From NCBI GenBank assembly GCA_030725715.1, contig JANRFG010000032.1, forward strand, positions 1 through 64,000: a DNA stretch of 64,000 nt, read 5' to 3'. Within the stretch, counting starts at the first letter, position 1. Every line of letters starts with the position of its first letter. The notes below the pieces were generated by a model that made no database searches, was not told the DNA's origin, and worked only from the letters and a program-made list of their open reading frames with translations. Source of the DNA: Opitutales bacterium. Its GTDB lineage: Bacteria; Verrucomicrobiota; Verrucomicrobiia; Opitutales; UBA953. Both the position numbers and the translations under genes were made by a program. This document shows, piece by piece, positions 12,001 through 55,478 of the stretch.

Positions 12001-15000
12001 GCGGCCTCGTGGTCGTCCAGGGCGCCTTCGTCCAGGCCCTCGGCGGCGTCATCCCGGCGCAGTCCCTTGCCATCGGCGCGGCCGCGACCGTGACCCTCGC
12101 CAACCAGCCCAACAGCTTCACGGGCCTGACGATGACGAACAACGCCACGCTCAACCTCACGGGCACGACCACCCTCACGGGGGGCGTCACCGTGACGAGC
12201 CGCGACCCCAGCCGCATCGCCAGCCTCGCCAACGGCACGATGAACCTCGGCGGCCAGGCCTCCGCGGCCTTCGCCATCGGCGCCCACGAGTCCAACGGCG
12301 TCAACTTCGCGCCCCTCCAGCCTTCGCTCAACATCGTGTCCGTCATCGAGAACGGCGGCATCGTGAAGTCCGGCGCCGGCGTGCTCCAGCTCTCGGGCGC
12401 CAGCACCTTCGCGGGCGGCGTCTCCGTCACCGCGGGCGGCCTCGCCCTCGGCGGCAACAGCAACCCGCTCTCCGGCGTCGTCACCTCCGGCCCGCTGGGC
12501 ACGGGCGTGCTCACCATGGCGGCGAACACCTCGCTGATCACCACCGGCACCTGGACCGTGGCCAACGACGCCACCTTCCTCGGCGACACGCTCTTCGCGA
12601 CCACTTCCACCTCGGCCCAGTCGCTGACCCTCGCGGGCGTGTCCACGCTGCCGTCCGTCTGGAACGTCGACGTCCTCAACCCGCTGCTCACCGTCGCGAT
12701 CGGCGACGCCTCGCCCTCGGGCGCGGGCGACGTCATCAACAAGAGCGGCCTCGGCATCCTGAACGTCGGCAACTACGCCGGCACGGTGATCGTCACCGGC
12801 GGCATCGGCATCTCGGATGACGGCAACGGCCGCGGCACCTTCCAGGAGGTCGTCCTCGGCGGCCCGCTCGTCCTCACCGGCGACACGGCCATCACGGTCA
12901 ACCGCACCGGCAGCGGCCCCTACGCCCGCAACAAGATCCTGCAGAAGAGCGACCTCACCGTCCCGGGGAACATCATGTCCGTCACGAACCTCAGCGGCTA
13001 CGGCCTTGAGTTCACCGGCACGACCACCCTCACCGGCCCGGCCCACTTCTCCGTCGGCACCGCGTCCACCTTCGTCCAGAACTCCGGCCTCATCCTCTCG
13101 GGCGTGGTCGACGACGGCGCCAACGACTACGGCCTGATCAAGTCCGGCCCTGGCACCCTCGAGCTCCGCGGCGTCAACACGTTCGGCGGCGCGGGTCGCT
13201 CCCTCGACATCCTCGGCGGCGTGCTCGCCGCCAATTCCGACGCCGCCCTGGGCGCCGCCGGCAACAGCGTCACGCTCAGCGCGGACGGCCTCCTCGGCGT
13301 CGGCTTCCGCGCCACGGGCACCTTCACCACCGCCCGCGAGTTCATACTCGGTCAGAACAACAATTCCTTCGAGGTCACCCTCGGCCGCACGCTCACGCTG
13401 ACCACGCCGTTCACCCTCGGCGGCAACGCCAATCGTGCGCTCGGCAAGAGCAACGCCGGCGTCCTGGAACTCGCCGCGGACAACACCGGCTGGACCGGCG
13501 CGATCACCGTCCAGACCGGCGCGCTCCGCCTCTTGCACAGCAACGCCGCCGGTTCGGGCGCCATCACCGCCTCGCCGAACGACTGGCGCGGCACCGGCGT
13601 CCAGCTCGCCAACAACGTCACGATCACCAACGCGCTCAGCCTGCAGGGCGGCAACAACGTGCTCTACGGGGGCATCGACTTCTCCGGCCAGCTCTCGAGC
13701 TTCAGCGGCGACAACACCTACGCCGGTCCGATCACCTTCGCCTTCGACGCCTCCCTCGGCGCCCGCGCGGGCGCCACGCTCCGCGTCACCGGCGGCATCA
13801 CCAACACCACGACCAGCCGTGTCATCGGCTTCAATACCGACCTCGGCGGCACCGTCATCATCGACGGCACGCCGTTCGCCGTTTCCGGCTCCACCCAGCT
13901 CTACTCCGTGCGCAAGCACGGCCTCGGCACGCTGAGCATCCGCAACGCGAACAACATCCCGGTCAACAGCGGCCAGTGGTTCCACCTCAAGGGCGGCCTG
14001 ACCACCTTCGAGGAAGCCGGTACCTGGTCCTCGCGCATCTACGTCGACAAGGGCTCCTCGCTCTGGCTCGACGACCGCAGCATCACCGTCAGCGGGGTAG
14101 GTCACTCGACCGCCAACGGCCGTCTCGGCACCGCCAGCACCAACGCCAAGGAAATCGGTTTCCGCGGCGGCGAGCTCGTGGTCCGCGGCAGCACGAGCGT
14201 CAACGACAGCCTCATCGAGAACCTCGGCAAGCCGACCTTCGGCCGTGGCGCCACGACGATCACCCTCGAGAAGAACCTGGCCGGCGAGATGACCGTGGTC
14301 TTCTTCGGCAAACCCGACGACATCGCCCCGCGCCAGGACACGACCACCAGCGGCCTCGACACCCGCGGCGCTTCCGTGCTCTTCCGCGGCGAGAACTTCG
14401 GCGTCTCCAACGACCCGGGCAATTCCAACGTCATCTTCGCGGGCGGTTCGACCCTCGACGGGACGACCGGCGCCAACGGCTCCGCCAGCAAGGGCATCTT
14501 CCCGTGGGCCTTGGCCGACATCACGGTCAACGGCCTCGGCACCGACTTCGCCACCGTCAGCCAGACGGGCGGCGGCGGCAACGCCGGCTCGGCGGACCGC
14601 ATCGTCCGTCCGCTGCAGCCGAGCGAATACTCGGCCACGGTCTCGGCGAACAACAACATCAAGCTGGACAACGTCGGGACCCGCGGCGTGACCGCTTCGG
14701 TCATCCCGAACTCCCTCACCTTCGCCGGCTCCTCCAGCCTCCTCCTCGGCGACGGCGTCCGCCTCACGCTCGTCTCCGGCGGCATCCTGGTCCGCGACGG
14801 CGGCACGACCAGCATCTCCGGCGGCGTGCTCAACCAGACCAGCGACCGCTCCCCGCTCAACATCTGGACGGTCGGTTCGGCCGTGCTGACGATCGACACC
14901 TCGATCAACGGCGGCCGCGGCACCGCCAACGCCCGCATGTCGATGATCAAGGCCGGCGCGGGCACCCTCGTGCTCGATCCGCCGACCTCGCCGATCACGG

Positions 15001-18000
15001 GCCTGACCACCATCGGCACCAATTCCCTGAGCGGCCAGTTCGTGCTCAACGAGGGTACCGTGCGCCTCGGCGCCGGGCTCACCAACGCCATCCAGTCCAA
15101 CAACTACGCCGCGCTCGTGGGCGGCACGCTGGACCTCAACGGCGGCTCGCAGTTCTTCTACGGCGTCTTCGCCGACCAGGACTACAACGCCGGCAACACC
15201 GTCGTCACGAACACCTCACTCACCTCGACGGGCCACTTCCTGATCAACAACGACAACAGTGCCCGCAACTGGGCCGGCTCGGTCCAGGGCGACGTGAAGT
15301 TCACCCGCTCGGGCACCCAGACCACCAACCTCTACGCCGCGCACACCTACACGGGTTCGACCGTCATCAACGGCGGCAACCTCCTCCTGCGCGACGACGC
15401 CCGCCTGGTCAACACCCCCTCGGTCGAGATCAACTACGGCGGCCTCTACTTCGACAACGCCGGCGGCACGATCGGCCTGGCCGACCGCCTCAACGACGCG
15501 GCCCCCATCACGCTGCGCGGCGGCATCCTGGAACTGCGCGGCCGCCAGCAGGCCGCCTCGGCCGAGCTGCTCGGCGTGGTCACCCTGGCCGCCTCGAACT
15601 CGTTCATCAACGTCAACGGCTCCGGCACCGCCGGCAGCTCCACGCAGCTCGACATCACCCGCCTCAACCGCGCGGTGGGCGGCGGCACGGTCAACTTCAC
15701 CGGCGCCAACGGCCAGATCGGCACGTCGACCCGCGTGGTCGTCCGCAACTTCAACGGCACCGACCTGACCGACCCCGCCACGCCTAACGCCGGCCTCACC
15801 GGCGGCATCCTCGGCGGCTGGGCCATCGCCAATACCAGCGACTTCGCGACCTCCATCCCGGGCCTCGGCGTCGCCGCGCTCGGCGCGAACGGCTTCCCGA
15901 CGTACTCCAACCTGACGTCCGCGACCAACACGATCGCGTTGGCCGCTCCGACCGACAACGTCAACCTCAACGCCGTCGTCGCCGGGGCCGTCGTCGTCGC
16001 CGCGGACACCACCCTGAACAGCCTCCGCATGGGCAATGTCGGCACCAATGGCGCGACCGCCAACACCGTCGACATCGCCGCCGGCCAGACCCTGACGCTC
16101 ACGTCGGGCGGCCTCCTCTTCTACAGCAGCGCCGGCCACACCGTCGGCGCCGTCAACGGCCAGGGCACGCTCACTTCGGGCGGTCCCGAGCTCTTCATCT
16201 ACACCCAGGGTGGCAGCGACAAGCGCGTCCGCGCCAATGTCGCCGACGGCGCCCAGTCCGTCGCGTTCACCAAGTCGGGCAGCGCCGTGCTGCGTCTCTC
16301 CGGCACGAACTCCTACACCGGCGGCACCTTCGTCAACCAGGGCACGCTCCATATCGAGGGTACTTCGAACATCCCCGCCGCGACCGATCCCTTCAAGGGG
16401 CTCGTCGTGAGCGGCGCGACCGTGAACCTGTTCACCCCCGGTCGTCTCGCCTCGGCCAATTACGCCACGATCGCGGGCGCGGGCGTGCTGAACTACATCG
16501 GGGACAACACCCAGTACGGGCTCGTCCTCGACAACGTCGGCTCGGCGGGCAACCCCACCATCCGCTCGTTCAACACCCTGAACCGCGACGGCACGGGCTC
16601 CAAGGGCGTCCTGACCGTCGGCGCGGGCGGCATCCTCGCCACCTCGGCCAACGTCGGCACCATCAGCATCATCGAAGGCCGGCTCAGCTTCGGCGCGGCG
16701 GGCGGCACCATCGACGTCGGCGCGATCGACGTCAACGGCGTCAGCGACGTCGATCCCCTGCGCGCGACCCTGCAGCTGCAGGCCATCGTCGCCACCTCCG
16801 GCGCGATCGCCAAGACCGGCCTGGGCGTCCTCCAGCTCAACGCCCAGTCCCGCTTCACCGGCGACTTCAACGTCCTCGCAGGCGGCCTCCGTAACGGCAC
16901 CGGCAACGCCGGTTCGCGCTTCGCGGACCTGACGATCGCCGCGGGCGCCCGTTACGACCTCGGCGGCCAGACCACCACCTGGGGCTCGCTCGCCGGCGCG
17001 GGTGAGATCTTCAGCGCCTCGGGCACGCCGACCCTCAACGTCGGCTACAACAACACCGACTCCACCTTCTCGGGACGCCTCATGCGGTTCAATGACGCGG
17101 CCTACCCTATGCTGACCAAGGTCGGCACCGGTACGCTGACCATGGACTCCGCCCAGAACGCCGACGGCGCCTGGAGCACCGTCCGCGTCGAAGGCGGCCG
17201 CCTCGTCTACAGCGGGGCCGGCCGGGCCTTCCCGGCCGTCACCAGCACCGCCCGGTCGGTCTTCAGCGTCGATGACGGCGCCGTCCTCGAACTCAGCAAC
17301 GTCGCCTCGGCGGTCGACCATCGTCTCGCCCTGAACGTCGCCGGTGTCTTCGAGCAGCGCGGCGGCACGCTGATCCTCGGCGGTTCCGCCTCCGCGGCGG
17401 TCACCGAACGCATCACGACCCTCAATGCCCAGTACGGCTCCGGTCGCATCGAGCTGCGCCCGAACGCGGCGCAGCCTCTCCTGCTCGACCTCGGCACGAT
17501 CGGCGGCGGCAACAACCACTCCACGCTCGTGTTCGCCGGCCTCTCCGGCGCGACCTCCGGCAACGGCGTCGCCAATCTCCGCATCGGCAACGCCAACGGC
17601 GGCGTGCAAGGCGGCGGCGCCAACGGCACGACCAACATCTCCGTCCGCGGCGACATGCTCGCCGACGCCTCCGCCTCGGGCAAGGGCACGGGCTTCCTGA
17701 TGCGCGACGTCGTCACGGTCCCGGATCTCACGACCGTCAACCATGGCAGCACGGACTACGTCCTCACGCTGCCTTCGGCGGCGGGCATCGCCATCGGCGC
17801 GAACGTCACCGGCCTCGGCTTCACCGGCGCCTGGACCGTCGGCGCCATCAACGGCAACGACGTGACGCTCACGGGCGGCACCACCATCGCCCCGAGCGGC
17901 GCCAATCCGGTCACCGTCAACTTCAGCAACTTCTGGCGCGCCCTGGCGGCCGATGAGCTCAACGCCGCCCCGCGCGGCGTCGCCGGCGACGGCGTCGGCG

Positions 18001-21000
18001 GCTGGGCCTTCGGTCAGAACGCGGGCGTCTCGTCCGCGCAGACGCTCTCGGTCGACACCATCGTCAACTCGCTGACGTTCTCCGGCACGGCCTCCTTGGA
18101 CTCCGGCCTCGGCGCCGCCTTCGGCTCCTACGGTCCGGGCGGTCGTCCGCTGACCCTCGAACTGCGCGGCGCCACGGCCTTCCTCGTGAAGGACGGCACC
18201 ACCGACATCGGCCTCGGCGCCGTCAGCTCCGGCGGCGGCACCACGATCTTCGGCCACGTCCTCCTCGGCGCCACGGCGAACTTCAACGCCGGCTCCGGTC
18301 TCGGCTTCAACTCGACGGGCGGCTTCGTCAAGGCCGGCGACGGTATCCTCAACCTCAACGCCCAGACCTACTTCAATCCGAGCACCTTCACCGTCACGCA
18401 GGGCAGGGTGAACCTCAGCTCCGCCGTCGACAACACGCTGCCGGTCGCCGGCACCCAGGGCGCGATCTCGGCCTCGTCCCTCCGCGTCGAAGGCCTCAAC
18501 GCGGTCGTCGACCTCAACGGCCGCTCGCAGGCGATCAACGAGCTCCGCAGCTCGAGCGAGAAGCCCGGCCAGGCCGGCACGGTCACCAACTCGGGCGCCG
18601 CCGCCACCCTCACGACGATCGGCAACAGCGTCTTCGCGGGCGCCCTCACCGGCAACCTGAACCTCGTCCGTGCCGGCAACACCACCACGACCCTCACGTC
18701 GGCCAGCTCCTACACGGGCCTCACGACCATCCGCGGCGGCAACCTCCAGCTCCGCGACGAAGGCGCCCTCACCGGCACCTCCGCCGTCAGCGTGAACAAC
18801 GGCGCGCTCATCCTCAACAATTTCGGCCTCAACGCCGTCGAGAACCCGACCCGCCTCAACCCGGCGGCTCCGATCACCCTCTCGGGCGGCGAGTTCCGCA
18901 TCGACGGTTCCGGCGCCTCGGACATCGCCGTCCGCGCGGACAGCATCACCGCCGGTTCCGGACGCAACACGCTCAACGTCCGCCCCTATGTGAACATGGG
19001 CAGCACCGTCCGGATGGACGTGGGCAACCTGACCCTCGTGCCGAACGCCCGCCAGACGGTCGTCATCACCGGCTGGTCCACCGCGAACAGCAGCGGCTAC
19101 AACACGCTCGGCAAGCAGGGCCTGACGGGTTCCGGCCTGGTCTTCATCGAGCAGCTCAACGGCGCCGCCGGCCCGGCCAACTTCAACTTCACCGGCGTCG
19201 CGACCACCAACGGTTCGAACATCGTCACCGTCGCCAGCACGGTCGGCCTCACCCCGGGGCTCCGCGTCACCGGCACGAACATGCCGGCCAACGCGACGAT
19301 CGCCAACATCGTCTCCCCGACCCAGATCCGCCTCAGCGTCAACGCCACCGTCACGGGCGTCGCGGGCACCCTGCGCGCCACGAACCTGACCAACAACCTC
19401 ATCGGCGGCTGGGCGGTCGCCAACGGCTCGACCTTCGCCACCTACGACAGCCTCTACGGCGTCATGGACATGGGTAGCTCCTCCGGCGGCTTCGTGGCCC
19501 CGGGCTTCACGGGGTCTGATTTCAGCGCCGCGACCGTCGCCACGGGCAACTACAACGACGGCGCCTCCCGCACCCTCACCGGGGCGAAGGTCGCCAACAG
19601 CTGGCGCATGGGTCCGAGTGCGGACCAGAACCTGACCTTCAGCGCGGGCGCCACGCTCACCCTCGGCGTGGGTATCGTCACCAACGGTAACCGCCTCATC
19701 CGCCTGCTGGCGAGCGATGCGACCAACAGCATCACCACGACGGGCGGCGACCTCTACGTCTTCCTCAACCAGAACGCCACGGAGATCGAACCGAAGCTCA
19801 CCGGCGCGATGGCCCTCGTGAGTTCCGGCGGCGCCACCCTCCGCCTGAAGCCGAAGTTCGCCTCCAACGACTACACCGGCGGCACCTTCGTCAACGCCGG
19901 CACGCTCACCCTCGACGGCGCGGCCGGCCTCGTCGCCATCCCCGGCGACGTGACCGTGCAGAACGCCGTGCTCAACATGTCGGCCGACCGCGCCAAGGCC
20001 GGCCAGCTTGCGGCCACGTCCAACGTGACCATCAAGGGCCACGGCCGCTTCTTCCTGCCGAATTACACCAACATGGTGGCCGGCACGAACGTGGTCAACC
20101 GCCTCGCCTCGGTGACCTTCATCACCGACGGCGCCCAGGGCTTCAATCCGGAATTCAGCCTCGGCAATCCGAACGACGTGGCCGCCTTCAGCGTGCTCGC
20201 GCTCAGCGGCACGAACGCGATCACTTCGACCAGCCAGGTCATGGGCCGCGTGCCGACGGTCTACACGGGCGACGCCGCCCGCACGCGCCTCGTCTTCGAC
20301 AACGTCAGCCCGGTCATCACGGTCAACGCGGGCGACGCCCTCGCCGGCCTCAACATGAACGTGCCGATCACCCAGGGCTCGAACGCCAACGTCGCGGCCG
20401 GCGGTTTCGCCGACATGACCTCGCTCACCAAGATGGGCCTCGGCACCGTCGTGATGATCCATGGCGACAGCGACTTCACGGCTCCCTTCGTCCTGGCCCA
20501 GGGCAGCCTGATGCTCGGCGGCAGCTCGACTTCCGACGGCCTGGGCGGCGCCTCCAAGGGCCCGGTCGGCGCCGGCACCCTCGTCATCGAGGGCGGCACG
20601 ACGATCCTCACGGACAACACGGTGCGTACGCTGCACAACCCGGTCACCGTCAACGGCGACTTCACCTTCGGCGGTCTCGTCCCCGGCGCGAACGTCACCC
20701 TCACGGCCCCGATCGACCTCGGCGCGGCGGCCCGCACCATCGCGGTGCCCAGCATGGCCGTGACCGCGACCCTCAACGGCGCCCTCACGACCACGGCGGG
20801 AGCCGGGGTCGTCGGCCTGACCAAGACCGGTGCCGGCACCCTGCAGTTCGGCGGCGCTTCGTCGCTCGTCTTCGGCGGCGCGGGCGTGACCGTCGCGGAA
20901 GGCATCCTGAAGGCGGGCATCGCCAATAATCTCCCGGCCGACACCCTCCTGACCGTCGCGGCGGGCGCGGGTTACGACCTCAACGGCTTCGACCAGCTCA

Positions 21001-22862: not shown

Positions 22863-22876
22863 GAGCGCGAGAGCAC

Positions 22877-22913
22877 GAGGACACGAGGGCCTGAGGACAC
22901 GAGGGCCCGAGGA
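22877..22913 (+). repeat. Short 16-bp tandem repeat after the giant gene
   Basis: The unit GAGGACACGAGGGCCT occurs at 22877-22892 and again, with the last base C, at 22893-22908, followed by a partial third copy (GAGGA). It sits between the stop codon and the terminator. No function is evident. Confidence 0.7.
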
Positions 22914-22917
22914 TAGG

Positions 22918-22944
22918 GAAGGGCGGCTTCGGCCGCCCTTTTTT
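22918..22944 (+). terminator. Rho-independent terminator of the giant gene
   Basis: A perfect stem GGGCGGC/GCCGCCC (22921-22927 and 22932-22938) with a TTCG loop is followed by six T (22939-22944). The flanking AA/TT lengthens the stem. It lies 56 bases after the stop codon in the right orientation. Confidence 0.92.
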
Positions 22945-23708
22945 GTGCCTGCGTGAGAGGTAGGGTCGGGACCGCGTCACGACATAGCTGACGCTATCGG
23001 CTGTTCTTAGTTCTTGGTTCGCCGTTTTTTCCTTAATTGAGGATACTGTCTTGAGGTAGGGTCAGCACTGCGTGCTGACCTAGGGCCGTCGCAGGGCGGC
23101 CGAGGGTAGGGGCGTGGCTTCGCCGCGCCCTCCGTCGCAGAGGGCACGATGAATCGTGCCCCACCCTTGGTTCGCCCTGCGGCGGGGGGATGCAGCTAGG
23201 TCGGCACGCAGTGCCGACCCTACCCGATGCAGGGGTCAGCGGTTGGGAACACCGTCGAGCAAAGGGAAACCGGAAACCGGATGATTGGCTGGGGGATGCA
23301 TTTTCAGGTCCTCAGGTTCGGGTGCAGGTTCGGGAAATCTGCCATCTGTCATCTGCCATCGATTCAGTCATCTTCTCAGGTGGCAGGCCTGATCCATTCA
23401 GCCCTCCATTCAGTCCTCAACGCAGCCCTCAATTCAGTCCTCCGTCATCGATTCAGCCCTCTGTCATCCGTCATCGATCCAGTCATCTTCTCAGGTGGCA
23501 GCCCTGATCCATTCAGTCCTCTATTCAGCCCTCCCATTTTTTGCCTCAGTCCTCAATTCAGCCGCCGCTATGTCGTGACGCGGTCCCGACCCTACCCGCG
23601 GCAAGCGAGGGCAGCACGTGGTGCTGTCCCTACCTCAAGACAAGCACTCCCCCGATACTCGATACTCTCAGTCTTGAGTCCCCCCTTGCTCCCCCCTATA
23701 AGACCTCC
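22945..23708. repeat. Gene-free spacer 1: composite repeat element, mostly in reverse orientation
   Basis: This 764-base spacer holds no convincing gene. In order it has the 30-bp module (22959-22988), a TTCTTAGTTCTTGGTTCG segment (about 23005; shared with 49055), and hairpins at 23060-23080 (arm GGTCAGCAC), 23110-23130 (GGGCGTGGC, one G-T pair), 23142-23161 (GGGCACGAT) and 23199-23219 (GGTCGGCAC). Reverse-orientation modules follow: the ACCGGATGATTGG segment near 23275, heptamers near 23340-23375, four 12-mers (23395-23442), then the 150-bp perfect repeat. It closes with a hairpin at 23609-23629 and two GATACTC heptamers near 23653. Short open frames here simply read through repeats. Confidence 0.85.
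23447..23596. repeat. 150-bp perfect direct repeat, copy A
   Basis: Base-for-base identical to 25177-25326 on my reading, 1,730 bp away and on the other side of the metallophosphoesterase gene. It contains reverse-orientation heptamers (GTCATCC type), a GCCACC-type segment, degenerate 12-mers and the 30-bp module at its right end. The identity implies a recent duplication or gene conversion. Confidence 0.9.
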
Positions 23709-24767
23709 ATGCGCCCACCCCTGTCGCTGGTTCTATCCCTATTCCTGCTGGGCGTGGCGACGTGTGCGCAGGCCGCCCGCGACCTGACCTTCTACCTGGT
23801 CTCCGACGTCCACGTCGGCATGGACTACCGGAAGACGACGCCGCCGTTCGGCCCCGACGCCTTCAACGCCCACGTCGCGCAGACGCTCGAAGTCTTGGGC
23901 AAAGTCCCCGGCACGGAATGGCCGGCCAGCGGCCCGGTCGCCGAGGCGATGAAAGGGAAGGGTCCGGTCCCGCGTCCCGCCGGCATGATCGTCGCGGGCG
24001 ACCTCACCGAGGTCGGTAACGCGAAGCAGTGGCAGGATTTCGACCGTCTCCTGCCGTGGCAGGGTTCGACGCCGGGGAAGTATCCCACTTACGCCCTGGC
24101 CGGTAATCACGACGGCGGCAGCGCCGGTCCCGTGCGTCAGGGACTCCGCGAACGCAATCGCGGCATGCTCGCCGCCGGCCTCGTCACGACCCTCTCCGAG
24201 GACGCGCTGCACTCCGCCTGGACCTGGCAGGGCGTGCACTTCATCAACGTCAACCTCTACCCCGGCGACGGCGCCAAGGAAGGCGCCAAGGAAAGCTCGA
24301 TGTGGAACCCTGAGGGCAGCCTGTCCTTCCTCAAAGCCCGCCTGGCGAAGATCGGCGCGGCCGAGCCGGTCGTGATCGCCACGCACTTGGACTTCAGCGC
24401 CCGCAGCACGTGGTGGGATCAGCCCAAGCGCAAGGCGTTCTATGAGGCCATCAAAGGTCACAATATCATCGCGCTCCTGCACGGCCACACCCACGTCATC
24501 ACCCGCCTGCGGTTCCCCGAGGACAAGGATTACGCCGACTTCGGCGGCACCGGCCCGCGCTTCGACTGCTTCTCCGCCGGCGCGTTCAAGCCCGACGCCA
24601 AGGAAGGCAAGCCGTTCCCCGGCCCGCGCTATCCGTGCGAGTGCTATGTCTTCCGCATCGTCGACGACGTCCTCGTCGCCGCGCACTACACCGCCGAACC
24701 CGGCGGCTGGAACACCAGCAAGCACGCCCCGCAGCTGACGTTCGTGAAGGATATCAAGGTGAAGTAG
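23709..24767 (+). CDS. Secreted calcineurin-like metallophosphoesterase
   Basis: A 352-residue protein of the metallophosphoesterase superfamily, which hydrolyses phosphoesters using a two-metal site. Visible motifs in order are SDVH (32-35), GDLTEVGN (97-104), GNHDGG (122-127), THLD (225-228) and HGHTH (258-262), which together make the usual metal-binding set. Residues 1-22 form a Sec signal peptide (LSLVLSLFLLGVA then AQA/AR), so it probably acts in the periplasm or outside. I chose the ATG at 23709 because it starts the signal peptide; the frame stays open further upstream only through repeat DNA. The stop TAG ends at 24767, and the last base of the stop is also the first base of a GCGGTTG heptamer array. 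It stands alone between two repeat-filled spacers. The substrate cannot be inferred. Confidence 0.92.
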   Translation: MRPPLSLVLSLFLLGVATCAQAARDLTFYLVSDVHVGMDYRKTTPPFGPDAFNAHVAQTLEVLGKVPGTEWPASGPVAEAMKGKGPVPRPAGMIVAGDLTEVGNAKQWQDFDRLLPWQGSTPGKYPTYALAGNHDGGSAGPVRQGLRERNRGMLAAGLVTTLSEDALHSAWTWQGVHFINVNLYPGDGAKEGAKESSMWNPEGSLSFLKARLAKIGAAEPVVIATHLDFSARSTWWDQPKRKAFYEAIKGHNIIALLHGHTHVITRLRFPEDKDYADFGGTGPRFDCFSAGAFKPDAKEGKPFPGPRYPCECYVFRIVDDVLVAAHYTAEPGGWNTSKHAPQLTFVKDIKVK

Positions 24768-25395
24768 CGGTTGGCGGTAAGCGGTTGGCGGTTGGGCGAG
24801 ATACACAAAGAGTATCGAGTATAGAGTATGGAGTATCGGGTGAGTGCTCGCCTTGGGCTAGGGTTGAGCGCCCTCGCTCAACCGCACGGCCGCCGCAGGG
24901 CGGCCGAGGGTAGGGGCGTGGCTACGCCGCGCCCTCCGTCGAAGAGGGCACGATGAATCGTGCCCCACCCTTGGGTTCGCCCTGCGGCGGAGGGGATGCA
25001 GCTAGGTCGGCACGCAGTGCCGACCCTACCCAATGCAGAGGTCAGGGGTTGGGAATGCAGTCGAGTAAAGGGAAACCGGAGACCGGATGATTGGCTGGGG
25101 GCATATTCTCAGGTCTCGGCCATCAGGTGCCTGGTTCGGATGTTCAGGTTCAGGTGCAGGTTCGGGGCCGGGATTAATCGATTCAGCCCTCTGTCATCCG
25201 TCATCGATCCAGTCATCTTCTCAGGTGGCAGCCCTGATCCATTCAGTCCTCTATTCAGCCCTCCCATTTTTTGCCTCAGTCCTCAATTCAGCCGCCGCTA
25301 TGTCGTGACGCGGTCCCGACCCTACCTCAAGGCAGGCACTCCCCCGATACTCCATACTCAATACTCGATACTCTCAGTATCCGGCCCACGCTCAC
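24768..25395. repeat. Gene-free spacer 2: two composite elements, head to head
   Basis: This 628-base spacer lies between convergent genes. The left part is in forward orientation: four GCGGTTG-type heptamers (24767-24794), four GAGTATC-type heptamers (24810-24837), and hairpins at 24862-24883 (arm GGTTGAGCG, loop CCCT), 24888-24905 (GGCCGCC), 24914-24934 (GGGCGTGGC), 24946-24965 (GGGCACGAT) and 25005-25025 (GGTCGGCAC). The right part is in reverse orientation: the ACCGGATGATTGG segment (near 25080), a CAGGTTCAGG hexamer-like stretch, the 150-bp repeat, and four GATACTC-type heptamers (25346-25373). The stretch 24888-25115 also matches 23087-23305 of spacer 1 with few differences. No gene is seen. 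Confidence 0.87.
25177..25326. repeat. 150-bp perfect direct repeat, copy B
   Basis: Identical to 23447-23596 in the same orientation. The right end is the reverse-oriented 30-bp module (25297-25326). Confidence 0.9.
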
Positions 25396-30390: not shown

Positions 30391-31089
30391 GGGAGTATTA
30401 GATGCCGAGGGGGCGGGAGAGTTCCAGAGGAAAAGGGGTGGAAGAAAGGGGGAGGGGTAGGGGCGGGGGTGCTGAGAGTATCGAGTATGGAGTATCGAGT
30501 ATCGGGGGAGTGCCTGCCTCGGGGTAGGGGCAGCACCGCGTGCTGCCCTAGTTTGCCATGGGTAGGGTCGGGACCGCGTCACGACATAGCGTGCTGAATT
30601 GAGGGCTGAATTGAGGACAGATGACAGATGGCTGAATCGATGAGGGAGGACTGAGTAGAGGACTGCGTTGAGGACTGAATGGAGGGCTGAATGGAAATAT
30701 CCCGCCACCTGCCACCCGGGGCTGCCACCCGAAACGGGGAGATGGCTGCATCGATGACGGATGACAGAGGGCAGATGACGGATGGCGAAGCTAATCGCGG
30801 AGGGCTGAATGGAGGGCTGCGTTGAGGACTGAGTGGAGGGCTGAATGGATGATTCCTGCCACCCGCCACCCGGGGCCGCCACCTGCCACCTGAAATGGAT
30901 GCTATCTGATCCTCCGGTTTCCGGTCTCCCTTTGAGTGGGTATATGCCTCGAGGTAGGGACGTGATCACTATCGCGTCCTCCCCCTTGGGTTGAGATTTC
31001 GTTAGGACAGCACGTGGTGCTGTCCCTACCCGAGGCCTGAGTCTGCCCTCGATTCGGTACACGACTCGGTCTTCTATTCTGTCATCCCC
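30391..31089. repeat. Gene-free spacer 3: near-complete forward composite element with a second 12-mer block
   Basis: A 699-base spacer between divergent genes, so promoters for both must lie in it. It contains four GAGTATC-type heptamers (30476-30503), a hairpin (30528-30548, arm GGGCAGCAC, loop CGC), the 30-bp module (30561-30590), GATGACA-type heptamers, and four 12-mers (30646-30693). After GCCACCT-type heptamers it has a second set of four 12-mers (30800-30847), the CCGGTTTCCGGTCTCCC segment (near 30915), and hairpins at 30958-30979 (arm GGACGTGAT, loop CACT, one T-G pair) and 31005-31025 (arm GGACAGCAC, loop GTG). No gene is seen; the open frames here are repeat read-through. Confidence 0.87.
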
Positions 31090-31890: not shown

Positions 31891-32316
31891 GAATCGATGA
31901 CTGAATCGATGACAGATGACAGAGGGCTGAATGCTCAGAGTATCGAGTATTGAGTATCGAGTATAGGGGGAGCGCATGTCTTGGGGTAGGGTCAGCACTG
32001 CGTGCTGACCTAGCTGCCTCGGTTGACCGCCGAGGGCTGAATGGATGATGCCTGCCACCCGACAAGATGACGGAATCGATGGCAGATGACTGATGACAGA
32101 TTTCCCGAACCTGCGCCTGAACCTGAACGCCCGAACCAGACACCTGACTGCCGAGACCTGAGACCTGAAAATGGGCACCCCCGCCAATCATCCGGTTTCC
32201 GGTCTCCCTTTGAGTGAATGCTTCCTGGCCAACCGGCCAACTGATCAACGGATCAACTTATCCAGCCCTAGCCCTAGCCCAAGCTCTGTCCCTCGCGGCA
32301 GCCACGCTGCCGCGCC
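31891..32316. repeat. Gene-free spacer 4: forward composite element plus a GGCCAAC module and hairpin
   Basis: This 426-base spacer lies between convergent genes. It has GATGACT-GAATC-GATGACA heptamers from about 31895, four GAGTATC-type heptamers (31938-31965) and a hairpin (31990-32010, arm GGTCAGCAC, loop TGC). A single 12-mer near 32030, a GCCACC segment, a run of CCTGAA-type hexamers (about 32105-32165) and the CCGGTTTCCGGTCTCCC segment (near 32190) follow. The right end has a GGCCAACCGGCCAACTGATC-type stretch (near 32227; related to 63757), AGCCCT hexamers (32262-32280) and a perfect hairpin (32294-32314, arm CGCGGCAGC, loop CAC). No gene is seen. Confidence 0.85.
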
Positions 32317-32862: not shown

Positions 32863-33203
32863 GGGGTTGCTTGATGAACCCCTGAAGGAGGGAAAAGTTG
32901 CGGGAAGGAGGGATGACTGAATCGATGACGTAGGGGTGAATCGACCACTGAGGACTGAATGGAGGGCTGCGTTGAGGACTGAATAGAGGGCTGAATTGAT
33001 AAGTCCCGCCACCTGCCACCCGGAGCTGCCACCTGCCACCCGAAATGGGACGATGACTGAATCGATGACGGATGACAGATGGCAGATTTCCTGCACCTGG
33101 ATGCCTGAACCAGACACCTGACGGCCGAGACCTGAGACCCGAAAGAAATGCCCGTTAGAAACCTCGTATCCTCTTGTCCACGCGCCCTCGGGCCCTCGAC
33201 CGA
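32863..33203. repeat. Gene-free spacer 5: partial forward composite element
   Basis: This 341-base spacer contains four 12-mers (32950-32997; second unit GAGGGCTGCGTT), GCCACCT-type heptamers (about 33008-33042), GATGACT-GAATC-GATGACG heptamers (about 33051-33083), and the CCTGAACC / GAGACCTGAGACC segment (about 33090-33140). The GAGTATC, hairpin and 30-bp modules are missing. No gene is seen. Confidence 0.83.
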
Positions 33204-34124: not shown

Positions 34125-34510
34125 GCGAGTGATACACCGAAAAGCGAGAAAGGTTTTAGCGGTTGGCGGTTAGCGGATGGGAATGGTGGAGGACTGAATC
34201 GATGACGGATGACAGATGGCTGAGTCGATGACTGATGCCGGAGGACTGAGTGGAGGTCTGCGTTGAGGGCTGAATGGAGGACTGAATAGATGAAGCCTGC
34301 CACCCGCCACCCGGGGCTGCGCCCGCCACCTGAGAAGAGGACTGAATCGATGACAGATGACGGATGGCGGAATTCCTGAACCTGCACCCGAGCCCGTGCC
34401 TGATTCCTGATGACCGATGCCTGAGGCCTGAAAATGGGCACCTAGCCAATCTGCCCTCCGTCCTCTGTCATCGACTCAGCCATCTTCTCGGCGACAGCTA
34501 TGCTGCCTTC
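34125..34510. repeat. Gene-free spacer 6: forward composite element without the GAGTATC part
   Basis: This 386-base spacer contains GCGGTTG-GCGGTTA-GCGGATG heptamers (34159-34179), GATGACG-type heptamers (about 34200-34240), four 12-mers (34241-34288, second unit GAGGTCTGCGTT), GCCACCC-type heptamers (about 34297-34335), a second GATGAC block, a CCTGAACCTG-type stretch (about 34375-34435), and a decayed hairpin (about 34490-34507). No gene is seen. Confidence 0.83.
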
Positions 34511-34972: not shown

Positions 34973-35620
34973 AGGGATGGAACACCGGGAAGTGGAGAAG
35001 GTTTTAGCGGTTAGCGGTTGGCGGTTAGCGGATGGGAGTGATGAGAGTATCGAGTATGGAGTATCGAGTATCGGGGGAGTGCCTGCCTCGAGGTAGGGGC
35101 AGCACCGCGTGCTGCCCTCGTTGCCTCGGGTAGGGTCGGGACCGCGTCACGACATAGCGGTGACTTGGGCTGAGCAGATGGCTGAATCGATGGCAGATGA
35201 CAGATGGCAGTGGTAAAATGGGAGGACTGAGTGGAGGACTGCGTTGAGGGCTGAATGGAGGAAGCCGGCCAACTGAGAAGATGGCTGAATCGATGACAGA
35301 TGACGGATGGCAGAACTCCTGACCTGCACCCGAACCTGAACACCTGAACCAGGCGCCTGATGGCCGAGACCCGAGACCTGAAAATGGGCTCCCCCGCCAA
35401 TCATCCGGTCTCCGGTTTCCCTTTGAGTGACTGTCTCGAGGTAGGGACGTGATCACTATCACGTCCGTGGGCGGACCGGGGTTGGTATGGTCGATGACTC
35501 TGCCCGGTGGCCGCCGTTCGCCAAGGCATTCCCTGCCCCGATACACGATACTCCATACTCGATGCTCTCGGTATCCCCAACCGCTGGCCGCTATCCGCTA
35601 ACCGCTTCCACCTGTCCTAA
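34973..35620. repeat. Gene-free spacer 7: the most complete forward composite element
   Basis: This spacer shows the full module order. It has four GCGGTTA-type heptamers (35007-35034), four GAGTATC-type heptamers (35045-35072), a hairpin (35097-35117, arm GGGCAGCAC, loop CGC), the 30-bp module (35129-35158), GATGACA-type heptamers, three 12-mers (35222-35257), another GATGAC block, a CCTGAACCTG-type stretch, the CCGGTCTCCGGTTTCCC segment (35405-35422), and a hairpin (35445-35466, arm GGACGTGAT, loop CACT) with a GTGGGCGGAC tail shared with 49390. Then come reversed modules: four GATACTC-type heptamers (35540-35567) and four CAACCGC/TAACCGC heptamers (35578-35605). No gene is seen. Confidence 0.88.
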
Positions 35621-35648
35621 ACAAAAGACCCCGGCGAACCGGGGTCTT
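35621..35648 (-). terminator. Rho-independent terminator of the small secreted gene at 35671
   Basis: A perfect 10-bp stem (35625-35634 with 35639-35648) with a 4-base loop is followed, reading on the minus strand, by TTTTGTTT. It lies 22 bases after the minus-strand stop codon at 35671. Confidence 0.88.
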
Positions 35649-39086: not shown

Positions 39087-39976
39087 ATGAATCCCGATCT
39101 CGTCAGAAACTACCTGACCGGCCTCCAGGATCGCTTGTGCGCGACCCTCGAGGAAGTGGATGGCCAGGCTAAGTTCATCACCGACGAATGGCAGCGCGCC
39201 GAAGGCGGCGGCGGCCGCACGCGCGTCATCGCCGGCGGCGCGGTCATCGAGAAGGGCGGGGTGGCTTTTTCGGACGTCCGCGGCCACGCGCTGCCTCCTT
39301 CCGCCACGCTCGCCCGCCCGGAACTCGCCGGCAAAGGCTTTCGCGCCATGGGCGTCTCGGTCGTCCAGCATCCGCTCAATCCCTACTGCCCGACTTCGCA
39401 CATGAACGTGCGCTTCTTCTGCACCGACGGCCCTGATCCGGTCTGGTGGTTCGGCGGCGGCTTCGACCTGACGCCTTACTACGGCTTCGATGAGGACGCG
39501 GCCTCCTGGCATCGCGCCGCGCGCGAAGCCGCGGGCGCGCACCATCCGAAGTTCAAGGCCTGGTGCGACGACTACTTCCTGCTCAAGCACCGCCAGGAGC
39601 AACGCGGGGTCGGCGGCGTGTTCTTCGACGACTTCACCGAGGGCGGCTTCGAACCGTCCTTCGCGATGATGCAGAGGGTCGGTGACGCCTTCGGTCCGGC
39701 CTACGCCGACATCCTCCGCCGCCGTAAGGACACCCCTTACGGCCAGCGGGAGCGCGACTGGCAGGAGGTCCGCCGCGGGCGCTACGTCGAGTTCAACCTC
39801 GTCCTCGACCGCGGGACCATCTTCGGCCTGCAGTCCGGCGGCCGCACCGAATCGATCCTGATGTCCCTCCCGCCCCGCGTGCAGTGGCATTACGGCCATC
39901 AGCCCGCCCCCGGCAGCCCGGAAGAACGTCTGCTCTCGCATTATCTGAAACCTCAGGATTGGCTCAAAGGGTCCTG

Positions 39977-39977
<1 letters not shown>
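39087..39977 (+). CDS. hemF: Oxygen-dependent coproporphyrinogen III oxidase
   Basis: A 296-residue HemF. It converts coproporphyrinogen III to protoporphyrinogen IX by two oxidative decarboxylations using O2, in the cytoplasm. Clear family segments are [20 protein letters not shown] (given in part), [45 protein letters not shown] and [11 protein letters not shown]. Length is typical. Its stop (TGA 39975-39977) overlaps the hemE start by one base, so the two genes are translationally coupled. Choice of the oxygen-dependent enzyme suggests aerobic or facultative growth. The gene is divergent from the YugP-like gene, with 148 bases between. Confidence 0.97.
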
Positions 39978-41002
<1,025 letters not shown>

Positions 41003-41379
41003 ATCGAGGACTGAGTCGAGGACTGAGGGCGAAGCTGACCACGGAGGGCTGAATTGAGGACTGCGTAGAGGACTGAATGGAGGGCTGAATGGATGATGCC
41101 TGCCACCTGAGTAGATGGCTGCATCGATGACTGATGGCAGAACTCCTGCCACCCGCCACCCGGGGCTGCCACCTGCCACCTGAATCTGGAAGATGGCTGA
41201 ATTGAGGGCTGAGTGGAAGCTGCCCCTCCTCAGTAACCTGTGACGGGTAGGGTTAGCGCCCTCACTTTAAATCTCGAAATGGGAACTTGGGGTATGCTGT
41301 TACTTAGGCTGATTTATCAATTCAGCCCTCAATTCAGTCCTCTACGCTGACCTCCACTCAGTCCTCTTCTTTGCCTCGC
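41003..41379. repeat. Gene-free spacer 8: forward composite element with a reversed tail
   Basis: This 377-base spacer lies between convergent hemE and hemH. Forward modules are GGCGAAGCTGACCACGG (near 41029; compare near 30784), four 12-mers (41044-41091; second unit GAGGACTGCGTA), a GCCACCT segment, GATGACT-type heptamers and GCCACCC/GCCACCT heptamers (about 41150-41190). A decayed hairpin (GGTTAGCGCCCTCAC, near 41251) resembles the one at 24862. The right end (about 41318-41368) has reversed 12-mers (AATTCAGCCCTC type). No gene and no clear terminator are seen. Confidence 0.82.
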
Positions 41380-42405
41380 TCAAACGTGATTCGGCTTCCA
41401 CGCGGCGGCGCGGTCGGCGAGATACTTCACGTAGACGTCCTGGTCGTTGAGGCAGGGGATCTGTTCGAAGGATTCGCCGCCGGCGTGCAGGAAGTCTTCC
41501 TTACCTTCTTCGCTGATCTCCTCGATGGTCTCGAGGCAGTCGGCGGTGAAGGCGGGGCACATCACGAGCAGGTTCTTCACGCCTTCGGACGGCAGGGCTT
41601 CGAAGCGTTCGTCGGTGTAGGGCGGGACCCACTTCTCCGGTCCGAAGCGCGACTGGAAGGACATCTCGAACTTGTCGGGCGAAAGGCCGGCGCGCTTGGC
41701 GAAGAGCAGGGTGGTCTGCACGCACTGGTGCTTGTAGCAGTTGGCGTGCGAGGGGCTGGCCTGGAGGCAGCAGTCCTTGACCTTGGTGCAGTGGGCCTTG
41801 GAGGCGTCGCCCTTGCGCAGGTGGCGTTCCGGCACGCCGTGGTAGGAGAACAGGATCTTGTCGAAGGGCTTGCTGAGCCAGGGCTTGGCCGACTCCACGA
41901 GGCAGTCGATGTAGGCCGGGTCGTTGAAGTAAGGCTGGAGCACGTGGTACTTCAGGTTCGGCGCGAGGCGGGCGAGCTCTTCCTGGATCTTCACCACGAC
42001 GGTCTCATAGGAGGACATCGCGTAGTGCGGGTACTGCGGCATCACGAACAGGTCGTCGATGCCGTGCTTGAGGACTTCCTGGACGGCTTCGGCGCAGGAG
42101 GGCGTGCCGTAGCGCATGCCGGTGATGACCGGCAGGCCGGTGGCGACTTCGAGCTTCGAGCGGAGCTTCTCGGTCGTGACGAGGAGCGGAGCGCCTTCGG
42201 GGGTCCAGACGGTCGCGTAGGCGGCGGCGGACTTCTTCGGGCGGGTGCGCAGGACGATGCCTTCGAGGAGCGCGAAGCGGAAGACGGCCGGATAATCGAT
42301 CACGCGCTCGTCGCCGAGGAACTCGCGGAGATACTCGCGGACGTGGGGCACCGAGGTGCTTTTCGGCGAACCGAGGTTGAGGAGCAGGATGCCTTTGCGA
42401 GCCAT
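41380..42405 (-). CDS. hemH: Ferrochelatase
   Basis: A 341-residue HemH. It inserts Fe2+ into protoporphyrin IX to make haem. Family segments include GILLLNLGSP near the start, VITGMRYGTPS, FVMPQYPHYAMSSYETV, ILFSYHGVPERHL (with the metal-site His) and the C-terminal LLVMCPAFTADCLETIEEI. Several Cys residues (CTKVKDCC region and CYKHQC) stand in the second half. The start was set at ATG 42403-42405 (MARKGILLLN); a longer frame begins at 42459. It is convergent to hemFE and separated from it by a repeat spacer, so it is a separate transcript. Confidence 0.96.
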   Translation of the reverse strand: MARKGILLLNLGSPKSTSVPHVREYLREFLGDERVIDYPAVFRFALLEGIVLRTRPKKSAAAYATVWTPEGAPLLVTTEKLRSKLEVATGLPVITGMRYGTPSCAEAVQEVLKHGIDDLFVMPQYPHYAMSSYETVVVKIQEELARLAPNLKYHVLQPYFNDPAYIDCLVESAKPWLSKPFDKILFSYHGVPERHLRKGDASKAHCTKVKDCCLQASPSHANCYKHQCVQTTLLFAKRAGLSPDKFEMSFQSRFGPEKWVPPYTDERFEALPSEGVKNLLVMCPAFTADCLETIEEISEEGKEDFLHAGGESFEQIPCLNDQDVYVKYLADRAAAWKPNHV

Positions 42406-42675
42406 GGGGATAGGAGGAAGAGATAACGGGGGGATGTCAATTTGCACAGGAAGCACCACAGGTATTGGCGGTTAGCGGTTGGCGGTTGGGCGCGCACAGG
42501 TGAAGCCAAGGGTAAACCGGAGACCGGATGATTGGCCGGAGGTCATTTCAGGTGGCGGGTGGCGGCGCCGGGTGGCAGGTGGCGGGGATTCCGCCCTCTG
42601 TCATCCGTCATCGATTCAGGCCTCTTTTATGCCCAACCGCTATCCGCCAACCGCTAACCGCCTACACCTATTTGT
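42406..42675. repeat. Spacer 9: short heptamer arrays in both orientations
   Basis: This 270-base spacer contains GCGGTTA-GCGGTTG-GCGGTTG (42468-42488), the reversed ACCGGAGACCGGATGATTGG segment (about 42515-42535), GGTGGCG/GGTGGCA repeats (about 42551-42590, the reverse of GCCACC), a reversed GTCATCC stretch, and four reversed heptamers CAACCGC-TATCCGC-CAACCGC-TAACCGC (42634-42661). No gene is seen. Confidence 0.8.
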
Positions 42676-49019: not shown

Positions 49020-49476
49020 GCGGAAGCGGTTGGCGGTTGGGAATCTGGGTCATTCTTAGTTCTTGGTTCGTCGTTTTTCGTTATTTCAGGACACTGCCTC
49101 GAGGTAGGGTCAGCACTGCGTGCTGACCTAGTTTGCTGCGGGTAGGGTCGGGACCGCGTCACGACATAGCGGCGCTGAATTGATGACTGAATCGATGACA
49201 GATGACGGATGACAGGGGTGAAATGGGAGGACTGAATTGAGGACTGCGTTGAGGACTGCGTGGAGGACTGAATGGATAAGTCCCGCCACCTGCCACCCGA
49301 AACGGATGCTATCTGATCATCCGGTCTCCGGTTTCCCTTTGAGTTAAGCTTCGCTGCCTTGGGGTAGGGACGTGATCACTATCACGTCCGTGGGCGGACG
49401 GACTTTGGTATGGTCGAAGAGCCTGCCCGGTGGTCGAACGCGCCCCGACGAACGGCGGCCAATGGCCGCCCTACCT
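49020..49476. repeat. Gene-free spacer 10: forward composite element
   Basis: This 457-base spacer lies between convergent genes. It has two GCGGTTG heptamers (49026-49039), the TTCTTAGTTCTTGGTTCG segment (near 49054), a hairpin (49108-49128, arm GGTCAGCAC, loop TGC), the 30-bp module (49141-49170), GATGACA heptamers (about 49190-49215) and four 12-mers (49227-49274). GCCACCT heptamers, the CCGGTCTCCGGTTTCCC segment (about 49320), a hairpin (49368-49389, arm GGACGTGAT, loop CACT) with the GTGGGCGGAC tail, and a hairpin at 49454-49470 (arm GGCGGCC) next to CTACC complete it. No gene is seen. Confidence 0.87.
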
Positions 49477-55228: not shown

Positions 55229-55478
55229 GGAGTAGTCGCGGTGTCAGCGGTTAGCGGATGGCGGTTGGCGGATGGGAAAGTCAGAGGAAAGAATTGAAGA
55301 AGGCCGCCAACCGCCACCTGAGGCTGCCACCTGCCACTTTGAATGGGTGCGGGGTAATTGGAATATCGTTAACCAGAGGTTAAATAAGAGTAAATGACGG
55401 AAAGCGGAGGAACGCCTCTGAAACAAAGCAACGGCTGTTGCGATTGTCTTCTGTGGGTTGATCCGTCAGCTTGGTCAG
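55229..55478. repeat. Spacer 11: heptamer remnants and AT-richer promoter region
   Basis: The left part has GCGGTTA-GCGGATG-GCGGTTG-GCGGATG (55247-55274) and GCCACCT-type repeats (about 55305-55338). The right part (55345-55400) is clearly richer in A+T and probably carries the promoter for maf. No gene is seen. Confidence 0.75.
55358..55385 (+). promoter_or_regulatory. Possible sigma-70-like promoter for maf
   Basis: TTGGAA (55358-55363) and TTAAAT (55380-55385) are separated by 16 bases in the only AT-rich patch upstream of maf. Each box matches the consensus at four of six bases. This is a weak call made by eye. Confidence 0.3.

What the first reader, a model, noticed from the sequence alone, without database searches (positions are those of the whole stretch)
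35007..35605. A composite intergenic element of about 500 bp with a fixed module order, repeated across the window
The same modules follow each other in the same order in many spacers: GCGGTTA heptamers, GAGTATC heptamers, hairpin, 30-bp module, GATGACA heptamers, four 12-mers, GCCACCT heptamers, second GATGAC block, CCTGAA-type hexamers, GAGACCTGAGACC, CCGGTTTCCGGTCTCCC, hairpin with arm GGACGTGAT. Spacer 7 (here) and spacer 3 (30476-31025) are nearly full; spacers 1, 2, 4, 5, 6, 8, 9, 10 and 11 hold partial, inverted or nested copies. Eleven copies in 64 kb is a high load. No transposase was seen, so spread would need help in trans or a recombination or replication-slippage route. I know of no named element with this structure.
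Basis: seen in the sequence. Interest (0 to 1): 0.88.

Follow-up and report, generated by a model that had tools for sequence, protein, structure and literature searches.

The report
Nested palindromic repeats with RAYT-linked REPs
The repeated spacer element is not one element but small palindromes lying inside one another like Russian dolls; some are REP hairpins of a kind linked to a small transposase that this genome carries elsewhere, the others have arms made of short tandem repeats and no known mover.

Summary
In detail: 11 window islands carry the modules in non-random order. The interpretation changes. (1) The three hairpins here are GTAG-tagged REPs: 104 of 176 non-coding GTAGGG words are followed by such a hairpin, against 8 of 307 for eight control words. 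A RAYT gene (REP transposase) between two inverted copies of one window REP lies elsewhere in this genome; 23 of 26 short RAYTs examined in the genus are flanked likewise. (2) Most heptamer, hexamer and 12-mer arrays are arms of longer palindromes with a preferred polarity. In 98 loci, 160 inverted arm pairs show 41 nested and 0 crossing relations (shuffles 5.6 and 5.4); REP pairs are inner 19 times, outer 2. Much of the 'fixed order' is outside-to-inside order. (3) Between species, module-free spacers differ by a median of 1 bp, module-bearing ones by 94; outermost modules are kept better than inner ones. Nesting is two deep in 28 of 107 islands with pairs, three and four deep once each. What spreads the heptamer palindromes is not shown. 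REP/RAYT, inverted heptamer pairs and REPs in palindromes are known; non-crossing nesting of many families looks new.

The parts
35007..35034 (+). A arm: four GCGGTTA-type heptamers (left outer arm)
35045..35072 (+). B arm: four GAGTATC-type heptamers
35093..35117 (+). GTAG REP, stem GGGCAGCAC; the same stem flanks RAYTs in G002 and G023
35130..35154 (+). GTAG REP, stem GGTCGGGAC, head-to-tail 37 bp after the first; the same stem flanks a RAYT in G007
35189..35210 (+). D module: GATGACA-type heptamers (not shown to be a palindrome arm)
35221..35262 (+). T arm: GGAGGACTGAAT-type 12-mers (right-hand T partner absent in this copy)
35292..35313 (+). second D module
35327..35349 (+). E half-arm (CCTGAA-type hexamers)
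35366..35381 (+). F half-arm (GAGACCY); elsewhere mostly the right half of an F-E palindrome, here predicted to pair with H
35391..35421 (+). G-H half-arm (CCCCCGCCAATCAT then CCGGTCTCCGGTTTCCC); elsewhere often the right half of an H palindrome of about 80 bp
35441..35466 (+). GTAG REP, stem GGACGTGAT; no RAYT with this stem was found
35540..35569 (-). inverted B arm
35579..35605 (-). inverted A arm (right outer arm)
22863..23708 (.). island 1: REPs of several stem families, H G E D T modules on the minus strand
24767..25373 (.). island 2: A and B arms, REPs, minus-strand modules, inverted B
30476..31029 (+). island 3: second nearly full copy
31908..32250 (+). island 4; the orthologous spacer is 19 bp in G004 and holds a single T palindrome in G007 and G015
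32949..33142 (+). island 5 (T C D F); the orthologous spacer holds no module in G023 and G004
34159..34472 (+). island 6 (A D T C D and inverted D)
41005..41367 (.). island 8: T arms facing each other; the right T arm is kept in G008, G007 and G004, the inside differs
42468..42661 (.). island 9: A arms enclosing H G C D modules; the inside differs in G004, G008 and G007
49051..49474 (+). island 10: REPs, D, T, C, H and a GTAG-outward REP pair
55247..55339 (+). island 11: A D C

Best explanation
The spacer element is a nested stack of short dispersed palindromes in a genus of Opitutia (Verrucomicrobiota). Two kinds are stacked. The first is GTAG-tagged REPs, singly, in head-to-tail pairs, and in inverted pairs with GTAG outward; many stem families, not all, flank a RAYT of their own (HUH/tyrosine REP transposase), which by established knowledge of RAYTs acts on such hairpins as single-stranded DNA. 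The second is palindromes, mostly of about 80 to 190 bp when not filled, whose arms are a small number of heptamers, hexamers or 12-mers. New palindromes, REP pairs above all, come to lie inside the loops of older ones; later loss of one arm leaves 'half' modules in a recurring order. Shown: palindromic anatomy, absence of crossing, the RAYT-REP link, genus-wide distribution, and turnover of content. Inferred: that hairpin loops are preferred entry points because they are single-stranded; that RAYTs still move the REPs. Not shown: what moves the heptamer palindromes. My best guess is entry as single-stranded hairpins by RAYTs or a related HUH enzyme, helped by recombination between like arms in different spacers. 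I think the elements are largely selfish and tolerated downstream of genes.
For: REP identity: (104 of 176 GTAGGG words against 8 of 307 for eight control words); one search shows covariation but its rows were chosen for pairing. RAYT: NF047646, E 6e-20, 71.6 bits; E. coli TnpA-REP structure 4er8, E 4.5e-10; H69, H71 and Y122 invariant in the 21 aligned; own RAYT between inverted GGACAGCAC REPs; 23 of 26 short RAYTs flanked on both sides, 2 on one, 1 on neither; 0 of 9 long relatives. Nesting: 41 nested, 0 crossing; 124 islands in 98 loci; mean of 500 shuffles 5.6 and 5.4; number of pairs 160 reached in 0 of 500; 20 of the 41 relations involve no REP pair; REP pairs inner 19, outer 2. Polarity of inverted neighbours: A 11 of 11, B 4 of 4, W 6 of 6, X 3 of 3, T 9 of 10, H 19 of 19, C 6 of 6, E 3 of 3, Y 3 of 3, F 15 of 18, close REP pairs 123 of 148. 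REP pairs inside C and H loops. Turnover. Distribution: A and H arms in the same 22 of 25 genus genomes and 0 of 13 others; the three without arms have no RAYT match and 4, 11 and 18 REP matches. Unit number. No target-site duplication of 4 nt or more stands out, as expected of HUH enzymes.
Against: No transposase has been tied to the heptamer palindromes; 8 of 9 long RAYT relatives have GGGGTCAG-type inverted repeats instead. Five arm-bearing genus genomes show no RAYT match (G003, G011, G012, G018, G021), one of them 99% complete. The own RAYT is below its family's curated cut-off (71.6 of 80 bits). For stems GGACGTGAT, GGATGCGAT and GGGCGTGGC no flanked RAYT was found. Not all order is nesting: D modules are direct neighbours 7 times and inverted once, G is mixed; outside the window 11 of 40 same-strand pairs go against the order. 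Most islands are only one deep (77 of 107 with pairs), and a nested fraction of 1.0 was also reached by 5 of 500 shuffles, where fewer pairs exist. Inner content is also shared between orthologous spacers above shuffling (0.39 against 0.25). No insertion junction could be read to the base, as the relatives compared are too far apart.
Confidence: 0.72

Rival explanations
1. One mobile composite element (MITE-like) of about 500-600 bp with heptamer terminal repeats, moved as a whole by a transposase acting in trans; other loci are its decayed pieces.
For: The 599-bp copy has 82-bp terminal inverted repeats. A block of up to about 190 bp (B, two REPs, D) recurs at 84-91% identity in another species at another place (G008).
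Against: Near-full copies were seen only on this contig (not all candidates scored); at the orthologous spacer G004 has one H palindrome and G003 an H palindrome plus an A arm; 41 nested and 0 crossing relations and separate polarity per family; no target-site duplication of 4 nt or more stands out.
Confidence: 0.1
2. Shuffling by homologous recombination and gene conversion: like arms in different spacers pair and swap what lies between them; no transposition of heptamer palindromes is needed.
For: Outermost modules are shared between orthologous spacers more than expected (left 17 and right 18 of 48 pairs; shuffled partners 7.0 and 5.9), inner content less so (0.39 against 0.25). In the 131-bp B palindrome the arms are alike and the loop has drifted in 6 genomes.
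Against: Does not explain how arms enter an empty spacer (19 bp in G004 against T palindromes in spacers of 176-186 bp in G007 and G015), unless G004 lost it. May act together with the best explanation.
Confidence: 0.25
3. The arrays are kept for function: they form hairpins, or bind a protein, at gene ends (termination, mRNA stability, insulation).
For: Convergent spacers carry modules in 20 of 23 cases, tandem 32 of 70, divergent 10 of 38 (20 spacers at stretch ends left out). Near-constant unit number in several families. B palindrome kept in 6 genomes with arms conserved and loop diverged.
Against: The same spacer is empty or very different in sister species; avoidance of promoters alone gives the same bias.
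Confidence: 0.2
4. Heptamer arrays arise locally by replication slippage, and the repeated order is coincidence of composition.
For: Slippage at heptamers has been proposed for bacteria in general (passage in PMC4679880 citing Mrazek et al. 2007). T (2 to 6 units) and X (3 to 7) vary in length.
Against: Narrow unit numbers in other families (B: 26 of 30 arrays have 4 units; H: 95 of 103 have 2); the unit-variant string CGCC in 9 of 30 B arrays; order and polarity.
Confidence: 0.03

Closest known systems
GTAG-tagged REPs and RAYTs (REPtrons), incl. REPINs and BIMEs (PMC3733652: abstract, sections 5, 7, 15, 16 and search passages read; PMC2817692, PMC3116915: search listing only)
   Same: GTAG tag, 9-bp stem with loop mostly of 3-4 nt, several stem families per genome, inverted GTAG-out pairs, RAYT gene flanked by REPs, bias to convergent and tandem spacers; Opitutus terrae is named there as highly enriched in GTAG repeats.
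   Different: Head-to-tail pairs are common here (45 of 77 close pairs in this genome's stretches; [quoted passage not shown] here REP pairs often sit inside other palindromes.
REPs inserted in other palindromes (PMC3733652 section 7: A. variabilis GTAG-15, T. roseum GTAG-23, H. neapolitanus CGTC-1)
   Same: REPs or REP dimers inside a longer palindrome.
   Different: That section describes one host palindrome type per case; here several palindrome families hold REP pairs and also hold one another (20 of 41 relations without REP pairs).
GGGAATC heptamer arrays of Xanthomonas and Nostoc (PMC4692102: abstract and passages)
   Same: Intergenic heptamer arrays, preference for four units, 70 and 75 inverted pairs in convergent orientation in two Xanthomonas genomes, few between divergent genes.
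   Different: There four units are linked to G-quadruplexes; here A, B and T units lack runs of three G and four units are still the commonest number. Nesting and REP inserts are not in the passages read.
TAACTGA heptamer repeats of Beggiatoaceae (PMC4679880: abstract and passages); cyanobacterial STRRs (recalled; no such paper was read)
   Same: Short heptamer arrays in spacers.
   Different: TAACTGA arrays are direct (169 sets and one indirect repeat per the abstract), the majority just upstream of start codons; one family.
TIRYT elements with GGGGWSAS-type terminal repeats (PMC3733652 section 16)
   Same: Present in the genus: 8 of the 9 long RAYT relatives examined show GGGGTCAG-type inverted repeats.
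   Different: A separate system; their repeats are not heptamer arms.

Membership tests
GTAG REP | GTAG at one end, unpaired, followed by a short hairpin | tested here: met
   104 of 176 non-coding GTAGGG words followed by at least 8 of 9 pairs, eight control words 8 of 307; 141 copies tabulated
GTAG REP | High copy number, intergenic | tested here: met
   160 model matches in this genome, a lower bound; 134 non-coding and 8 coding in the stretches read
GTAG REP | Stem families with compensatory changes | tested here: met
   partly circular because the 23 rows were selected for pairing; 12 stems with two or more copies
GTAG REP / REPtron | RAYT gene flanked by inverted REPs | tested here: met
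   own genome L100; 23 of 26 short RAYTs examined in the genus (35 of 36 genus matches examined)
GTAG REP / REPtron | RAYT moves the REPs | not testable with these tools
   needs a transposition or cleavage assay
RAYT | HUH motif and catalytic tyrosine; similarity to TnpA-REP | tested here: met
   curated NF047646 cut-off missed by both own copies, reached by four genus matches; which tyrosine is catalytic is recalled
Xanthomonas-type heptamer arrays | about four units, inverted pairs, intergenic | tested here: met
   for A and B; H and C have mostly two units, D three; T has 12-base units
Xanthomonas-type heptamer arrays | G-quadruplex-forming unit | tested here: not met
   units GCGGTTA, GAGTATC and GGAGGACTGAAT lack runs of three G (sequence); only X (GGGGTA) could
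MITE (DDE transposon derivative) | terminal inverted repeats | tested here: met
MITE (DDE transposon derivative) | target-site duplication | tested here: not met
   flanks of 19 H, 11 A, 15 F, 9 T pairs and 120 REP pairs: for 4 nt or more at most 3 of 120 against 0.4 expected, best of all offsets; weak 2-nt excesses only (REP 17 against 7.3, H 5 against 1.3, best of all offsets). Old duplications could have decayed
Rfam RNA families | covariance-model match | tested here: not met
   0 matches in the window at gathering score

The most novel reading that the evidence does not exclude
The tandem-heptamer arrays seen in scattered bacteria are arms or half-arms of an unrecognised class of self-nesting palindromic mobile DNA that enters hairpin loops, spread in this genus by RAYTs or a related single-strand enzyme; the favoured unit number would be set by the enzyme or by the hairpin length, not by quadruplexes.
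Probability: 0.3. Interest if true: 0.78.

Novelty: new variant of a known kind. Interest (0 to 1): 0.58.

Why it matters
It gives a rule, non-crossing nesting, that turns confusing 'composite' spacer repeats into a readable insertion history, and it links heptamer arrays, whose role and spread are open questions, to hairpins and to the REP/RAYT system. It also weakens the quadruplex account of the four-unit preference, because arrays whose units lack G runs show it too. Among the 25 genus genomes searched, 22 carry the arms and 3 do not, so gain and loss can be studied.

Tried and rejected
Rfam: nothing. Reverse transcriptase as a maker of tandem repeats: no match in this genome and in 1 of 16 genus genomes searched, own included, so set aside. 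Heptamer arms as ends of the long RAYT relatives: not seen. Target-site duplications: none convincing. GAGTATC arrays in records named Burkholderia, Anaerolineales, Halocynthiibacter and two Bacteroidales: in those five loci the annotation shows none of this genus's REP stem families; I take them as independent arrays, an inference. Literature searches that turned up no description of this system: (listings of open-licence PMC full texts only; three papers opened). One search timed out and was redone. No structure prediction was run. One search's alignment had some wrong leading bases and was replaced. One search counts two overlapping loci of G014 (L120, L153) separately for two spacers. The A pattern's reversed control is not zero (14 in this genome against 93); the H pattern's is zero in all 38 genomes. 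In one search the mean length difference of module-free pairs is 26 bp, driven by few pairs (bearing: 150).

Full report
What is there. The window is the first 64 kb of a 157.7-kb contig in a 1.93-Mb assembly, 94.9% complete. Genus relatives include contigs that match, by length, records of the MAGs 'Opitutia bacterium UBA953' and 'uncultured Opitutae Loclat_bin-12941'; UBA953 is placed in Opitutia, Verrucomicrobiota. Fuzzy patterns give 11 islands in the window, in which 32 of 36 adjacent non-REP module pairs follow the stated order and strand against 28% in shuffles. Across 144 spacers of this genome, period-7 arrays number 62 against 0.2 in shuffled spacers; periods 6, 8 and 12 are also raised.

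The hairpins are GTAG REPs. The three hairpins of the element read GGTAGGG followed by a 9-bp stem and a loop of 3-4 nt; in this genome's stretches 12 stems occur twice or more. In non-coding DNA 104 of 176 GTAGGG words are followed by such a hairpin; eight control words give 8 of 307. The pair counts (98% of cells paired, 68 double changes) are strong but partly circular, as I chose sequences that pair. Of 142 REPs found in the window and 24 stretches, close pairs were 45 head-to-tail (commonest spacing 38 and 37 bp), 28 inverted with GTAG outward and 2 inverted with GTAG inward. A covariance model finds 160 in the whole genome, 4 to 180 in the 24 other genus genomes, and among 13 same-order genomes 46, 4 and 1 in three and none in ten (lower bounds, at most 150 candidates per genome were scored).

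A transposase exists. A Pfam Y1_Tnp search gave one weak hit in this genome. The 163-aa ORF (L100 3925-4416) matches the NCBI model REP-associated tyrosine transposase with E 6e-20, 71.6 bits, under the curated 80, and the solved E. coli TnpA-REP. It lies between two inverted GGACAGCAC REPs with GTAG outward. A second RAYT is on contig 16. Of 36 matches in genus genomes I examined 35 (the one in G019 left out). Of 26 short ones, 23 have outward GTAG REPs on both sides, 2 on one, 1 on neither by the script, though a GTAGTG variant lies downstream of that one; the 9 long ones have none, and 8 of those 9 show GGGGTCAG-type inverted repeats instead. Of the stems present in the window, GGGCAGCAC, GGTCGGGAC, GGTCAGCAC, GGTCGGCAC, GGACAGCAC and GGTTGAGCG flank a RAYT somewhere in the genus; for GGACGTGAT and GGGCGTGGC none was found. 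In 21 aligned RAYTs both histidines of the HUH motif and a tyrosine are invariant. No transposase was found by Pfam in 30 of 33 window genes called and in part of the giant gene.

Most arrays are arms of palindromes. Looking at the nearest neighbour of the same family, inverted pairs have a preferred polarity: A, B, W and X face inward as written in all cases seen and T in 9 of 10; H, C, E and Y face outward in all cases seen and F in 15 of 18 (98 loci, 678,274 bases; several families have only 3 to 6 pairs). D does not behave so (7 direct, 1 inverted) and G is mixed. The sequences show it directly: an H element reads CTCAA-GGGAGACCGGAAACCGG, a loop of about 40 nt, CCGGTCTCCGGTTTCCC-TTTGAG; C palindromes enclose REP pairs (L105 1883-2101 and 4241-4436); H palindromes enclose REP pairs (L116, L122) or an F-E palindrome (L120 3724-3913). 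Over 124 islands there are 160 inverted arm pairs, 94 of them REP pairs, with 41 nested relations and 0 crossing; shuffling the order inside islands gives on average 103.9 pairs, 5.6 nested and 5.4 crossing. Five of 500 shuffles also had no crossing, with fewer relations. The polarity was learned from the same data; nesting was not. Of the 41 relations 20 involve no REP pair; REP pairs are the inner partner 19 times and the outer 2 times. Of 107 islands with a pair, 77 are one deep, 28 two deep, one three and one four deep: L041 1334-1679 reads Y H F E E F H Y, a complete four-layer palindrome. Hence much of the 'fixed order' is the order of nested palindromes read from one side; D, T and C runs are not fully explained this way.

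Evolution. The same spacers can be compared because gene order is kept in several species. In 86 orthologous pairs (38 own spacers), 20 module-free pairs differ in length by a median of 1 bp (mean 26) and 66 module-bearing pairs by 94 bp (mean 150). In 48 pairs with two or more modules on each side the leftmost module is shared in 17 and the rightmost in 18, against 7.0 and 5.9 with shuffled partners; inner modules are shared at 0.39 against 0.25. So outer modules are kept better, and inner ones are not wholly replaced. At 42406-42675 the window and G004 keep both A arms and G007 the right one, with different content inside each; G008 has only a short remnant. At 31891-32316 G004 has 19 bp, G007 and G015 a lone T palindrome. 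At the finding's own spacer G004 has a lone H palindrome in 163 bp where the window has 698 bp. A B palindrome on contig 16 (L104) is 131 bp in six genomes with conserved arms and a drifted loop. A and H arms occur in the same 22 of 25 genus genomes and in none of 13 others; the three lacking them also lack RAYT matches (association with RAYT p = 0.024). Unit numbers: B 4 in 26 of 30, A 4 in 36 of 66 (3 in 25), H 2 in 95 of 103, D 3 in 35 of 44, C 2 in 56 of 65; T (4 in 29 of 67) and X (5 in 11 of 24) are broader (the detector needs at least 3 units for A, B, D and X, 2 for the others).

Place. Modules lie in 20 of 23 convergent, 32 of 70 tandem and 10 of 38 divergent spacers of 60 bp or more; 20 spacers at stretch ends were left out (convergent against divergent p = 4e-6, tandem against divergent p = 0.06). 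Stretches outside the window were mostly chosen because they matched, so densities there are biased, but the comparison of spacer classes is within stretches.

How it works. For REPs the mechanism is that of RAYTs (established knowledge, not shown here). For the heptamer palindromes, entry into loops is inferred from nesting; the enzyme is unknown, no target-site duplication of 4 nt or more stands out, and there is no reverse transcriptase match in this genome. Recombination between like arms may add to the shuffling. The literature gives precedents for each ingredient: REPs inside palindromes (PMC3733652, section 7), inverted four-unit heptamer pairs in Xanthomonas (PMC4692102, passages). I found none for non-crossing nesting of many families in the searches listed under Tried and rejected, which cover open-licence papers only.

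Noticed in passing
window 30-22862 (+): One ORF of 7610 aa; in 9030-22859 Pfam sees passenger-associated-transport repeats and a PEP-CTERM motif near the end: probably a giant surface protein.
   Followed up: partly
window 39087-42405: Heme genes side by side: coproporphyrinogen III oxidase, uroporphyrinogen decarboxylase, ferrochelatase; the ferrochelatase is 99% identical in three genus members and 76-87% in the other full-length genus matches, a hint of recent exchange.
   Followed up: no
L059, L063, L065, L076, L087: GAGTATC heptamer arrays in records of other phyla or classes, in L059 next to GAACCAC and GAACTAT heptamers.
   Followed up: partly
G000 contigs 6, 15, 25, 29, 34, 37: These contigs end in or near such repeats, so the assembly probably breaks on them and the true load may be higher.
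   Followed up: no
L207, L208, L209, L210, L138, L145, L146: Long RAYT relatives flanked by GGGGTCAGGCC or GGGGTCAGAC inverted repeats, the TIRYT pattern.
   Followed up: partly
window 35625-35648: Hairpin AAGACCCCGG..CCGGGGTCTT, terminator-like, kept in G003, G004 and G014 beside the turning-over element.
   Followed up: no
L104 5559-5689: B palindrome of constant 131 bp just upstream of a gene start in six genomes; arms conserved, loop diverged. May be a case with a function.
   Followed up: partly
L041 1334-1679: A complete four-layer palindrome of four different array families (Y, H, F, E) around one centre.
   Followed up: no
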